Shown one piece after another: positions 8,106-14,165 of a stretch of 64,000 bases of DNA. The stretch is from contig NSJX01000034.1 in assembly GCA_002286715.1 (NCBI GenBank), forward strand, positions 186,001-250,000, in the 5' to 3' direction. The first letter of the stretch is position 1. The number at the start of each line of letters is the position of its first letter. The position numbers were made by a program, and so were the translations under genes. Source of the stretch: Dentipellis sp. KUC8613. Its lineage: Eukaryota; Basidiomycota; Agaricomycetes; Russulales; Hericiaceae. The notes beneath the pieces are model-generated. The model ran no database searches. It was given only the letters and a program-made list of their open reading frames with translations, and was not told the DNA's origin.

Positions 8106-8432
8106 GCGGGGTGGGTGGATTTTTATTGCGAGCTTGGAAAGCGGATGGGCCGCGCTGGGCCTTCGACTACGTCTCAACGTTCTCCGGGCTGTGTGCTCCC
8201 CGGAGACTATAGCCGGTCAAGACGGGAGGGGGAAGGGAGGTTGTAGCAAAGGTGCTGGTGCATGATGCTTCAATGGTTCGCATTCCTACCAAGGATACTG
8301 AGTATCATGTCCAGTCTAGTCGAAGGTGCACAATTCGAGGATGGTTGAATGGCTTGGTGGACTTTGAATACCCTTGCCTGAAGCTTTCGGGCACCGCGGT
8401 GCTAGAAGGAAGGTATATTCCGACGCGGTCCC

Positions 8433-9509
8433 ATGGATAGTTCACGTTCAGTGGTGAGGTCATCCACGTGGTTGTCTCAGCCTGCTGCACCGTCGGCCGC
8501 TTCCCGTGGGTCGACTGCTAAAAGCTCTGCCGCAAAGCCCAAGGGCGGCGCTAAGGGCAAAGGGAGGGCCCTACTTTCGTCTCCGTCTCTGACGGCGGGA
8601 CCCTCTTCCTCCTTGTCTGGCAGCTCGTTCCCGTCCGATGATGCCCTCGCGGCATACGGCTTCTTCCCTCTCCCTGATGCCAAATCCACCGCTTCCCACT
8701 CCCGCTGGTTGGCTGGCGCTGCCATCAATCGCTTCAAGCACATCGAGGACATGATCACAGAGCACCGCGCCCATCTTGACCGCGAGCTCGACACCCAATC
8801 CCTCTTGCTCGAGGAGCTCCATGGTGCTCCCGCTCCTGTTCACCCGAGCTCCTTCCGAGAGCTCCATCAGCAGTCTGTGGATACACGTCATGCATTGAAC
8901 ACGTCCATCCAAGACATTCGATCCCTTGCCACCGATGTTCAACATTTGCAGGAAGCGGTAGCTGACATTCGCAACACAGTTGCTCAACTGTCCATCACCA
9001 CCCGTCCGCCTTCGTCGGCTGCCTCTACGGCAGCCGCCCAGGCTGCCCTGACCATTCTCCCTCCGCTTCCTCCCTCCAATGCGCCCCGATCTTATCTGCC
9101 CAAACGCCATGCGTCTCCTCTAGCTGCTGCGCGTCCCACGAAGCAAGTTCGTCCCAATCACTCAAAACGTCCTTTTCTTCGCTTCGGCCCACTGCGAGTC
9201 CCTGCGGGCGAATCGCCTGCGACTACCTTCGGCCGCTTTCATGCCTTGGTCCGCGGGTCGTCCAGCCAGGAGACTGTTGCCTCTGTGCGTATTGCCGATG
9301 ACGACCCTTCCTTCCTGGAGGTTGTCTTTGCGCGCGGTGCCAACACGGCATCTATCTGGTATCACAACTGGTATAACTCTATCCCAAATGGCTTTGCCCA
9401 TATGGCACCGTTGGTTATCGACCCGTCCGCATCGGTGCCTCTTACGCCACCTTCAATCTCGTCTCTTCCCCCACTACCTACTCCTGTCCCGTTCTCTTCT
9501 GTCCGGTAA
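8433..9509 (+). CDS. LINE ORF1 protein
   Basis: A 358-residue protein with a Ser/Ala/Lys-rich N-terminus, then a helical heptad-like region (about residues 95-190, including LDRELDTQSLLLEELHG) that probably forms a coiled coil for trimerisation, then a Pro/Ala linker. It ends in a C-terminal globular part (about 245-330) that could be an RRM-like RNA-binding fold. No CCHC knuckle is seen. The role inferred from the LINE family is RNA binding and RNP assembly. It reads in the same frame as ORF2. The TAA stop lies inside a GTAAG sequence that could be a 5' splice site, so a longer ORF1-ORF2 fusion product is possible. Confidence 0.8.
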   Translation: MDSSRSVVRSSTWLSQPAAPSAASRGSTAKSSAAKPKGGAKGKGRALLSSPSLTAGPSSSLSGSSFPSDDALAAYGFFPLPDAKSTASHSRWLAGAAINRFKHIEDMITEHRAHLDRELDTQSLLLEELHGAPAPVHPSSFRELHQQSVDTRHALNTSIQDIRSLATDVQHLQEAVADIRNTVAQLSITTRPPSSAASTAAAQAALTILPPLPPSNAPRSYLPKRHASPLAAARPTKQVRPNHSKRPFLRFGPLRVPAGESPATTFGRFHALVRGSSSQETVASVRIADDDPSFLEVVFARGANTASIWYHNWYNSIPNGFAHMAPLVIDPSASVPLTPPSISSLPPLPTPVPFSSVR

Positions 9510-9583
9510 GATCTATGGCTGCGACGTGATCTGGTCTGATGCTTATGTACGACTTTGTGTTTTACTATCATATGTAATCCTAG
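9506..9583 (+). other. Candidate 78-nt intron between LINE ORF1 and ORF2
   Basis: The sequence starts GTAAGA, has a CTGAT branch-like motif at 9535-9539, and ends TAG after a T-rich stretch. It holds the ORF1 stop (TAA 9507-9509) and a second in-frame stop (TGA 9537-9539). Its length is a multiple of three, and its removal joins the ORF1 frame directly to the ORF2 frame (CG plus T, then CCT CAA TCA ATG). Splicing itself is inference. Confidence 0.5.
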
Positions 9584-9593
9584 TCCTCAATCA

Positions 9594-12500
9594 ATGTCAC
9601 CGCTTTCTGTCTCCTCTGACCTCTCCCCCGGTGACACGACGTCGCCCGTTTGCCAATCTTTCCTCACGATGTCTGTGCTATCATGGAACATAAATGGCCT
9701 TGTCTCGCTGAAACTTTGCGACCGCACTATTTCACAGTGGCTTTTTCAGTTCGACATCATTATTTTGCAGGAAAGTCATCTCCGGCCTGATGAGCATCTT
9801 ACGTTGCCTTTTCCGAATACACATGCTTGTTACTCGTTTGGCAGGCCACTCTCCGACACACTGCAGCGTCGTGGTGGCGGAGTATTGGTCTTCATTCGTG
9901 CGTCAATCACACACAACGTGCGATCCGACCTTTCTGGTCCTGACTTTGCCGTCCTGACAATTGCTTCATCTTGGACCCTGGTGGGAGTCTACATCCCTCC
10001 TGCTTCCTCCAAGTGGCATCGACGGGCAGCTGCGCCACCTGCAACTCGTTTGGCAGAAATTATCACATATTGTACGCGCTGCACGGCCATTCCGGTACTT
10101 CTCTTGGGTGATTTCAATGCTAGATGTGGATGTTTGTCGCCATCCTCTTCGCTTGAGCATCTGTCTCTTGACAACACTGTCGATGCTTCTGGTCGTTCTC
10201 TCCTGGCATTATGCAAGAGTACGGATTTGTGTCTCCTAAATGGGACCCATGTCGAGGATACCTCGCCCGGTCATCTCACTGACTTTCAATCCAATGGGAG
10301 TGCGACCGTCGACTATGCAATTGCAGCCTCATCCCTGATTCCATCAATTCTTCAGCTCTCTTGCTCCCATGTATTACCATCATCTTCGGATCATGCTCTG
10401 CTCCGACTTCTGCTCGCCCACCCTCTCTCCCAATCTGTGGATGCAGCCCATTCTTCTTTTGCCCCACACGAAATTCGTATCTCTCCCACTCTGCATGCGC
10501 CTGCTCCGCTGCACCATAGCCTTAGCCTTCACAGTGTTGATGATGTTTTGGCTTCGACTCTACGCAGTCGTCGATCCCCGGCCAGTGCAGCTGCAATGTT
10601 TTATGGACCGATCACATGTGCTTGTGTATGTGCTCTGCTCACTGTCTATACTGACGGTTCAGCTCGTCGCATTGCAAACGTTCTCTGTGCCGGAAGTGGC
10701 ATCTACTGGGGTCCTAACTGCCCTGCCAATGCCTTGTTTCATGTTCCAGGTACTTCCGTACCATTTCCGTCTACTCCCTCTCTTGTTCACTTGCATTGTC
10801 CTTTATAGGTCTGCAGACCAATAACCGCAGAGAGCTGTTTACTGTTCTACAGGCGCTGGATTCCGCACGCCTACATCATCCTCTGAATATTTGCACTGAT
10901 TCCACGTATGTCATTCATACTTTCTGTCATTGGATCGGTACCATTGCAGATCTCGGGTGGTGCGTCCCCAACAGCGATCTCATCCACGCCACTGCCCTGC
11001 GGCTGCACATGCACTGTGCTCCTGTTCAGTTCATCAAAGTTAAAGCACACTCAGGCAATGCTCATAATGACTGTGCCGACAGTTATGCTGCTCAGGGTGC
11101 CCTCCTGCCACCTGTGGAGCCGGTACTCCCTCCATTGTCGATGTTGGCACCGTGCATGGGTGCTGCATGTCCGGCATCCTTGAAGATCTCAACCAGACTT
11201 CCCCGCCTTCCTTTTCCTGTGGAGCACTCTTCCGGACCTTGTCACTCTCCATCGCCACTGCCTTGCGCATTGGTCTCAACCTCCTCTCATGCTGCTCAGG
11301 TGGCTCATCGTGGTCGTGCAGCTTTGCAAGCAACACAGCGCCAAAACTTACGGGAGCTTATTGACTGCCATGGTGATGCTCACTTCTGGCGTCTAGTCCA
11401 CGAGTGGTCTGATCCACGCATTGGCCCTCCGGCTGTTGCTCTGGATGCGTTGCGCGAGGAATTTGAATCTCGCATGAATCCGGCACCTGTTTTGCCAGAG
11501 CAATGGGATTCCCGGTCCTTCCATCGTGCAATTGGGCAGCTACACTGCATCCCTGCTTGTACCGACCGCATGCATCTCCCTTCGTGCCTCTCAGCTGAAT
11601 TTGTGGCATCGGATGTCGCTGCCGCTAAGGTACACCTTCATGATCGACATCAGCGCACGACTGCATGTGGCATTGACAAGGTGTCTTATGCGGATCTTAT
11701 GGAAATTCCAAACAACAGTCTCGCCACCCTTGCGAACAAGTGTCTCACATCGCCCATCCTCCCACGCGAGTGGCTGCCAACCGTCCTTGTGGCAATTTTG
11801 AAACGGGGGAAGCCTGCTGCATGTGCCTCCAGTTATTGCCTCATTGGTTTGGAGAGCTGCTTGTTGAAATTCGTCACATTGCTCATTGAGGCCCGTCTGC
11901 GCACATGGGCCGATGAATCGTGCCTTCTTCCAGACTCTCAAAATGGCTTTCGACCGGGCTTCCGCACAAATAACAATGTATTTATCCTTCGGTGTGCGCT
12001 TGATGCAGCGCATGCCACGGGCATGTCTGTTTATGCAACTTTCGTCGACCTCACCAATGCATTTCCCTCCACAAATCACCCTGCACTATGGCTGAAGCTA
12101 TATCGCCTTGGGTTCCATGGTCCCATGTTCGATTTCCTCCGCATGCTGTATTCGTCGATGACCTATTCCGTGCGTGCAAATGGGGAATATTCTGCAGATT
12201 TCAAGTCCACTCATGGGATCCTTGCTGGTGACACCCTTTCTCCCCTCCTTTGGCTGCTCTTCATGTCGGACCTACACATTCCAGACGACAGTGCCGATGT
12301 CAGACTCAATGGGCGATATGTGTCCCATCTCGAGCAGGCAGATGACATTGTTCTCTTTTCAACCTCAGCCTCTGCATTGCAGCGAAAGCTCGACGCCCTT
12401 GCACGGTGGTGTTCAAGGAATTTCTGTGTTATCAACATGAAAAAGACCCAGGCTCTTGTATTTGGGCGTCTACCGCATGTGCGCCCGACTCTTCGTGTTG

Positions 12501-13708
12501 ATGGCGTTTCTGTCTCATGGTCCCCGTCCTACACCTACATTGGAGTTATCTTCCAGACAACCACTGCTAACATTTTTGCCGCTCACTATTCTTGGAAAGC
12601 AGAGAAAGCAGCGCAGCTCGCAAACGTGTCGTTCACCCTTAGCTCCATGGTCGGTGTCATCCTGCCGCAGCAAGGCAAGCTTCTCTACACCGCCCGTGTT
12701 GACCCCCATCTCATCCATGGCTGCGATGTTGTCCTGGATGTCTCGCCACGTCTGCTGCATCCACTTGAGGACGTGCAGCATCGCTTCCTCAGGCGTCTGC
12801 TCGGACTGTCTTCCCGATCCACACTTCTCTTCCTATTCACTGAGCTTGGGCTGATGCCACTGCGATATCGGCGTGTCAAGCTAGCCCTGCGCTTTCTAGC
12901 ATATGTCGTTTCTGAACCTCATTCGCGGCTCGTTCGTCATGCCATCGAACATGCCCTCACCCTTGCTCATCAGGGATTTCCCTCATGGGCGTCTGACCTC
13001 CTCCATGTCATGCAGGACCTTCCCTACCCATTTGTGGCACATCTTTCCATGCTTGAAACTCCTTCTTCCATCGACGCATTGTCGGACCGCCTCATCTCCA
13101 ACATGAAACAGTGCATGGCGGCCGAGCTCGCAGCATCTGCACGCTCAGAATTCCTCGTCACTCGTGAACAGTGCAGTGACAACAGTGTTTGGCACAAGCT
13201 TCCTATTCTGCATTTCCGTCACTATCTCAATGCTTCAATCCCGGCCTACCGCGTCTCTCTCACAAAGCTACTATTTTCTGACCACAGTCTTGCCATTGAG
13301 GCTTTGCGCCATAACGACCGCCACCGCCAGTATGTTCCGCCTGCTTTTCGTTTGTGCCGCATGTGTCGTCACAGCGTGGAAGACCCGGTCCACGCTTGCC
13401 TCGCCTGTGTCGCGCTCCCTGAACTCTGCGAACTGCGCTCTTCCTTTCTGAATGATGTTGATCGCACTCTCCCCGGATGGCGTTCCGACGTGATTGGCAA
13501 GCCTCTCGAATACCAGTTCAATTTCCTGGTGGCGCACGTTCGGATCATCGGGCGCCTCGCGAAATTTGTGCATGATGTTCTGCAGCTCTACGCACAGCGT
13601 GAGCTTTATGTCCCTGCACAATTTCGCCTCCATGGTATGCCCACTGATCTCTTTTCCGTGCTCACTACTCACTCCATGCATTGGATCTGCAGGCTAGCAT
13701 TTGGGTAG
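9594..13708 (+). CDS. LINE ORF2: endonuclease, RNase H, reverse transcriptase
   Basis: From the first ATG and with intron 10750-10808 removed, this gives 1351 residues. The AP-endonuclease domain (about 26-255) has WNINGL, LQESHL, LLGDFNARCG, ATVDYAI and SDHALL, so all catalytic positions are present. RNase H follows at about 345-475: VYTDGSA, the Glu in NNRREL, the Asp in CTDST, then KVKAHSGNAHNDCADSYA. RT comes next: motif A FVDLTNAFPS (about 797), motif B GILAGDTLSPLL, and motif C LEQADDIVLF (about 895; Gln replaces the usual aromatic residue before ADD). A CX2C-H-C knuckle (CRMCRHSVEDPVHACLAC) is at about 1235. The order EN-RNH-RT differs from the common EN-RT-RNH. A second possible start is the ATG at 9669, just before the endonuclease. 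Confidence 0.88.
10750..10808 (+). other. Candidate 59-nt intron inside the RNase H domain of LINE ORF2
   Basis: The sequence begins GTACTT and ends CTTTATAG. Read through, ORF2 terminates at the TAG at 10806-10808 and the downstream RT lies in another frame. Removed, the frame is restored exactly and the protein reads FHVPG-LQTNNRRELF, which is the expected RNase H sequence around its catalytic Glu. This homology fit is the main support; no good branch-point motif is seen. Confidence 0.65.
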
Positions 13709-13856
13709 ATGGGCACTGTCCCCGTACATTACTGTATTCTCTTCTCACTCATTTACCCTTTGTTCTCCTGTTTGTGACAATAAATTGGATGAGAAGTGGG
13801 TGCTCCGCGATATGGCAATGCGCCGTGTCATGTGGCGCGGATAGGGCTGTTCCTCA

Positions 13857-14165
13857 ATGGGACCTCCCCCGAATTTAAACTCCTCCTCCTCCTCCTCTCA
13901 CAATTCCGCCGCGAGCGCATGGGCCTTCGTGGCCGACGAGGAAGTCGGAATGCAAGATGTGGAGTTGGACCAGTGCGGAGCACCACATGTACAGGGCCGC
14001 GGGCAGGATAGCGTCGACCCTCTACTGGTGCCATACCCGTATGTCCCAGCAGATATGTTGGAGAAGTATGTGAGGGTGCGTCAGGAGACATTGGCTCGGA
14101 AAGAACGCGAGGGCTTGGAGATGATGGTCTGCTCGTGGAAGGATGGATTCGCAATTGGCCCTTGA
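13857..14165 (+). CDS. Small hypothetical protein, 102 residues
   Basis: An ATG-started ORF just downstream of the LINE. It encodes a Ser-rich N-terminus and a predicted helical, charged C-terminal half (YPYVPADMLEKYVRVRQETL and onward). No family is recognised. It may be a genuine small gene, a remnant of a gene broken by the LINE insertion, or chance. It lacks obvious introns and its promoter would lie in the LINE 3' end. Confidence 0.3.
   Translation: MGPPPNLNSSSSSSHNSAASAWAFVADEEVGMQDVELDQCGAPHVQGRGQDSVDPLLVPYPYVPADMLEKYVRVRQETLARKEREGLEMMVCSWKDGFAIGP

What the first reader, a model, noticed from the sequence alone, without database searches (positions are those of the whole stretch)
10750..10808. 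Spliceosomal intron inside the RNase H domain of a retrotransposon
Without removal of 59 nt the RT is out of frame and a stop ends ORF2 in mid RNase H. Removing GTACTT...TTATAG restores exactly VPG-LQTNNRREL, the conserved RNase H block. A LINE copies its own RNA, so a spliced transcript would lose the intron. Its presence means that unspliced RNA is the template, that the intron arose after insertion, or that intron retention is used to separate genomic RNA from mRNA.
Basis: partly seen in the sequence, partly recalled or inferred. Interest (0 to 1): 0.8.

Follow-up and report, generated by a model that had tools for sequence, protein, structure and literature searches.

The report
Possible weak intron in fungal LINE
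A jumping gene of a fungus (Dentipellis) carries 59 extra bases in its RNase H region that the relatives compared do not show; they are placed like a small intron but have weak splice signals, so either a new intron or a disabling insertion is possible.

Summary
Confirmed: relative to the 16 relatives aligned over the site (33-49% identical), this LINE ORF2 has 59 extra nt at 10750-10808. EN and the 5' part of RNase H lie in one frame, the rest of RNase H and RT in another, and the first frame stops at the TAG ending the insert. The host is Dentipellis sp. KUC8613 or nearly identical. The copy looks full length and recent, with the RNase H acidic residues present; no second copy of this region was found.

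Not established: that the 59 nt are spliced. Homology fits removal of 59 nt about equally at 10 registers (10748-10758); two are GT-AG. The favoured one sits at CAG|GT...AG|G, rare by chance, but its donor GTACTT lacks the +5 G of 33 of 35 host introns, and its total score lies below all 32 introns of the strict host set (5 of 35 are lower in the fuller set). No XXXYYYZ slippery heptamer was found. I give about 0.5 to a young, weak intron gained in this copy and about 0.4 to a non-spliced disabling insertion. Regulated intron retention has no positive support. More solid: these elements have RNase H upstream of RT (EN-RH-RT).

The parts
8329..8336 (.). candidate 5' target-site duplication CACAATTC
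   Evidence: only repeat of 7 nt or more between 8201-8440 and 13871-13930; its other copy is 13899-13906, directly after the 3' tail
8337..13898 (+). LINE, apparently full length, with a (CTC)n 3' tail
   Evidence: 3' end shared with L003, L008-L011 and L021, whose matches cover only the tail; 5' end inferred from the duplication
8433..9509 (+). ORF1 (first ATG to stop), no Pfam family above cut-off
9594..10749 (+). ORF2 first part: EN (Exo_endo_phos 9678-10394) and start of RNase H (VYTDG at about 10641)
10750..10808 (+). 59 extra nt, GTACTT...TTATAG, at CAG|GT; candidate weak intron, phase 1; its last three bases are the in-frame stop
10809..11101 (+). rest of RNase H (QTNNRREL onward)
   Evidence: PF00075 in P0002 residues 31-128; alignment with 16 relatives
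11807..12550 (+). RT domain (RVT_1) with QADD box; a near-invariant Arg is Cys at codon 11837-11839
13899..13906 (.). candidate 3' target-site duplication CACAATTC

Best explanation
A recent APE-type LINE of Dentipellis, found in one near-complete copy, carries a 59-nt insert private to it or to a narrow lineage, placed at a CAG|GT proto-splice site inside ORF2. The most likely reading is a young spliceosomal intron gained as DNA after the element inserted. When U2-type splicing removes it, EN-RNase H-RT is one protein; when it is retained, translation ends at the TAG of the 3' splice site and gives EN with half an RNase H. Shown: the insert, its length, the frame break, its absence from the relatives aligned, open frames on both sides. 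Inferred: that it is spliced, and that it arose after insertion. Its weak signals suggest inefficient splicing at best.
For: A 59-nt gap is recovered without a motif requirement in 14 of 15 relatives, within the allowed 50-68 nt; none of 16 aligned relatives has an insert at the site, though P0017 is poorly conserved there and has small gaps. GT..AG flanked by MAG and G: 3 of 100,000 random inserts against 5 of 35 host introns. Length 59 is typical: 14 of 35 host introns are 55-63 nt. The second frame is well kept: 3 deviations at 82 near-invariant columns, 13th of 27 sequences by rate, and RNase H acidic residues are present on both sides. No XXXYYYZ heptamer at 10600-10810.
Against: Donor GTACTT lacks the +5 G found in 33 of 35 host introns (48 of 58 with weak rows included); best branch-like motif is TTCAC; acceptor TAG occurs in 2 of 35. 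Total score 11.5 lies below 32 of 32 strict host introns (minimum 11.8, median 19.0); 38 of 849 antisense GT-AG pairs and on average 7.7% of pairs in 20 Markov sets do as well. In the laxer sets 5 of 35 and 17 of 58 host rows score below it. The same donor with the CAG at 10816 scores better (16.1), and that 67-nt removal does not restore the frame. A hairpin GGUAC-UUCC-GUACC (10749-10762) covers the donor. When GT-AG is not required, alignments never choose 10750 itself and score 0-3 higher. No transcript evidence; the strain's annotated protein P0040 does not cover the site.
Confidence: 0.5

Rival explanations
1. A non-spliced insertion mutation (filler DNA or small insert with a 4-nt AGGT repeat at its ends) that put ORF2 out of frame; the copy is young but dead, and the GT-AG ends are partly coincidence.
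For: Weak splice signals; GT-AG arises in 2.2-10.0% of shuffled inserts given the local flanks; a near-invariant RT Arg is Cys, so the copy may be inactive anyway; the insert is more pyrimidine-rich (0.746) than each of 33 host introns (maximum 0.71).
Against: MAG|GT..AG|G is very rare for random inserts, although an insertion duplicating AGGT at such a site would make it too; length is typical of host introns; no source for the 59 nt found elsewhere in the assembly; apart from this break ORF1 and both parts of ORF2 are open.
Confidence: 0.38
2. An intron carried by the active family: genomic RNA stays unspliced as template while a spliced mRNA makes the full protein.
For: Element copies by RNA, so a lasting intron would need this; a 3' fragment L003 is 99.2% identical over 374 nt, so the lineage was recently active.
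Against: L003 matches 13524-13897 only and does not cover the site; none of 16 aligned relatives has the insert; none of the 4 hits to the EN part ends at the site, the nearest (P0037) ending about 13 codons before it.
Confidence: 0.05
3. Programmed -1 frameshifting in the 91-nt overlap, with the 59 nt translated as a loop in RNase H.
For: The frames overlap at 10718-10808 and the relation is -1.
Against: No XXXYYYZ heptamer at 10600-10810; other kinds of shift site were not tested. Local folding not unusual, z -1.22; the aligned relatives lack the loop.
Confidence: 0.02
4. Assembly or sequencing error in the draft contig.
For: Single locus in a 171-contig draft; no reads available.
Against: A unique 59-nt insert with intron-like ends is not a usual error; the RT stretch downstream agrees with the annotated protein of the strain, which does not bear on the insert itself.
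Confidence: 0.05

Closest known systems
EN-RH-RT LINEs of Agaricomycetes (Hericium alpestre EWM64_g8810, Dentipellis fragilis EVG20_g10896, Ephemerocybe and Coprinellus proteins, metagenome ORFs)
   Same: same order EN, RNase H, RT in 7 of 7 scanned; QADD or HADD in most of the sequences printed
   Different: none of 16 aligned shows an insert at this RNase H position
Penelope-like elements with introns (PMC3846280, passages seen)
   Same: a retroelement ORF holding a spliceosomal intron is reported there
   Different: those with an endonuclease carry GIY-YIG and are another class; splicing is not shown here
Oomycete Utopia LINEs (PMC4640811, passages seen)
   Same: RNase H upstream of RT, a position the paper calls unique
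   Different: Utopia has a restriction-like endonuclease and an archaeal-type RNase H; here an APE-type EN precedes the RNase H
Introners (PMC9860276, passages seen)
   Same: some families have 3-9 bp repeats flanking the insertion; that such repeats supply splice sites is recalled
   Different: the 59 nt were found once in the assembly, so not a repeated introner family

Membership tests
U2-type spliceosomal intron of this host | GT..AG ends | tested here: met
   10750 GT, 10807-10808 AG; not the only register that homology allows
U2-type spliceosomal intron of this host | donor consensus GTRNGY | tested here: not met
   GTACTT; +5 G in 33 of 35 host introns
U2-type spliceosomal intron of this host | branch point CTNAY near the 3' end | tested here: inconclusive
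   best is TTCAC, score 2.4; 4 of 32 host introns score lower
U2-type spliceosomal intron of this host | length in host range | tested here: met
   59 nt; 14 of 35 host introns are 55-63 nt
U2-type spliceosomal intron of this host | removed from RNA | not testable with these tools
   no transcript data
APE-type LINE | EN and RT domains | tested here: met
   PF03372 and PF00078 over cut-off
APE-type LINE | copies reduced to the 3' end, 3' tail repeat, target-site duplication | tested here: met
   the duplication is a candidate of 8 nt
Tad1/I-type LINE with RNase H after RT (order recalled) | order EN-RT-RH | tested here: not met
   RNase H lies before RT here and in 7 of 7 relatives scanned

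The most novel reading that the evidence does not exclude
An autonomous fungal LINE uses inefficient splicing of a newly gained intron in RNase H to divide its transcripts: retained RNA serves as template and makes EN with half an RNase H, spliced RNA makes EN-RNase H-RT.
Probability: 0.05. Interest if true: 0.75.

Novelty: new variant of a known kind. Interest (0 to 1): 0.4.

Why it matters
A spliceosomal intron in an RNA-copied LINE would be a dated case of intron gain, because the element looks young and the relatives compared lack it; it would let one test whether splicing hinders the element's own spread. If it is not spliced, it is one inactivated copy. The surrounding family is of interest in either case: it has RNase H before RT in an APE-type LINE, a position that the Utopia paper (PMC4640811, passages) calls unique to oomycete Utopia.

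Tried and rejected
De novo intron finding by open frames alone had no specificity: GT-AG gave 1323 pairs against 1484-1886 for six control dinucleotide pairs; replaced by spliced alignment. The first spliced alignment used a wrong reference frame and was discarded. A strong GT-AG pair at 13635-13692 (score 20.9) looked like a second intron, but its donor is not kept in L008-L011 and its score is within the maxima of 20 Markov sets (16.5-23.3); none of 849 antisense pairs reached it, which speaks the other way. Matches of the clade on C112 and C162 are fragmentary and do not cover RNase H. Viral contigs: 3 stretches matched a pattern, none confirmed. Papers: 10 searches (others found nothing). 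In the titles and abstract starts listed (20 of 23, 12 of 24) I saw no intron in a LINE ORF2 and no EN-RH-RT family in fungi; the library is open-access only. For the strict host set I dropped 3 of 35 rows by eye or length (GTTCCT; GTCTTA; one of 146 nt); 23 of 58 rows had low flank scores. All three sets are reported. An unconstrained spliced alignment timed out and was redone smaller.

Full report
What is there. The window lies in a 34.1 Mb draft genome of 171 contigs. A partial RT protein annotated for Dentipellis sp. KUC8613 (P0040, 199 aa) agrees with the window over its first 98 and last 100 residues; its gene model has one other residue in place of 22 between them. So the host is that strain or nearly identical (Russulales, Hericiaceae). 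At 8337-13898 lies a LINE: ORF1, then ORF2 with EN, RNase H and RT in that order. It ends in (CTC)n and has a candidate 8-nt target-site duplication. A fragment, L003, matches 13524-13897 at 99.2%; L008-L011 and L021 match the tail at 76-84%.

The insert. ORF2 is split between two frames with a 91-nt overlap. Of 36 homologues searched with tblastn, 14 have matches that reach the site from both sides, and most of these pass from the first frame at about 10748-10763 to the other at about 10787-10814 (P0006 and P0018 less neatly). Spliced alignment of 15 relatives recovers a 59-nt gap in 14 of 15 without any motif requirement, within the allowed 50-68 nt. In an alignment of cut-out RNase H regions none of 16 relatives has an insert at the site; P0017 is poorly conserved there and has small gaps. 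Eight relatives that span the site come from metagenome sources (lgn P0005, P0006, P0010, P0015, P0018; jgi P0007, P0008; ena P0011) and are most simply continuous frames; the gene callers are not stated, so this is an inference. The NCBI proteins are gene models and could hide an intron.

Edges. The 59-nt length is firm, the edges are not: ten registers from 10748 to 10758 fit within 5 score units, the first five giving the same sequence, and two of the ten are GT-AG. The finding's word 'exactly' is therefore too strong, although the closest relative reads PGLQTNN as the 10750 register would. GT-AG has a chance of 2.2-10.0% given the flanks and 1.4% for a random place in ORF2. The fuller pattern MAG|GT..AG|G came up in 3 of 100,000 trials, and 5 of 35 host introns show it. 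This is the best evidence for an intron, although an insertion that duplicates AGGT at such a site would make the same pattern; ORF2 has 4 MAGGT sites.

Splice signals against the host. I mapped introns in actin-family and Rab genes of the same genome: 58 rows, 35 with good flanks, 32 after dropping three. The donor is mostly GTRNGY with G at +5 in 33 of 35; the candidate has GTACTT. Its branch-like motif TTCAC ranks above 4 of 32, its acceptor above 4 of 32, its donor above 5 of 32. The total, 11.5, is below all 32 (minimum 11.8), above 5 of 35 in the fuller set and above 17 of 58 in the unfiltered set; under the strict model 38 of 849 antisense pairs score as high, and 7.7% of pairs in 20 Markov sets on average. 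The same donor with the CAG at 10816 scores 16.1 but removes 67 nt and leaves the frame broken. These introns come from conserved genes, so weak introns may be under-represented.

Other readings. No XXXYYYZ heptamer lies at 10600-10810 and the RNA folds without unusual stability (z -1.22), so -1 frameshifting is unlikely; other shift sites were not tested. The 59 nt were found once in the assembly, so they are not a repeated introner. The region 10550-11100 was found once and the EN part once, so siblings cannot be compared here; the tool calls its counts lower bounds. ORF2 is otherwise open and its second part well kept: 3 deviations at 82 near-invariant columns, 13th of 27 sequences by rate, one of them Arg to Cys in RT.

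Judgement. An intron gained in this copy and a disabling insertion are close; I put 0.5 and 0.38, by judgement and not by a formal calculation. The step from 'intron' to 'unspliced template' or 'regulated retention' has no evidence. Intron-bearing retroelements are known in Penelope-like elements (PMC3846280, passages), so the kind is known; for an APE-type LINE I saw no report in the listings of my searches.

The family. RNase H precedes RT here and in 7 of 7 relatives scanned with Pfam. In the same genome, six contigs with an RT and an RNase H hit close together (C1, C91, C102, C113, C139, C161) have RNase H after RT. The Utopia paper calls an upstream RNase H unique to oomycete Utopia (PMC4640811, passages). 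In 5 of 16 relatives at least one of the first three RNase H acidic residues is lost (P0008, P0011, P0017, P0018, P0028; that these are the catalytic ones is recalled).

Noticed in passing
window 9594-13708; P0004, P0006, P0011, P0013, P0016, P0022, P0028: APE-type LINE family of Agaricomycetes with RNase H between EN and RT, a position the Utopia paper calls unique to oomycete Utopia; six other LINE loci of this genome have it after RT.
   Followed up: partly
P0008, P0011, P0017, P0018, P0028: RNase H of this family has lost one or more of the first three acidic residues in 5 of 16 relatives; Pfam still recognises the domain in P0011 and P0028.
   Followed up: partly
window 11837-11839: A near-invariant Arg of the RT domain is Cys in this copy, also in the annotated protein P0040.
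   Followed up: partly
window 10749-10762: A perfect 5-bp hairpin GGTAC-TTCC-GTACC covers the candidate donor; 3.6% of shuffles of 10740-10775 reach such a stem.
   Followed up: partly
window 13635-13692: A strong-looking GT-AG pair near the end of ORF2, probably chance since the donor is not kept in the L008-L011 tails.
   Followed up: yes
P0041: A Rhodotorula protein with PF01693 and RNase H, probably cellular, is 39% identical to the LINE RNase H piece; possible origin of the domain.
   Followed up: no
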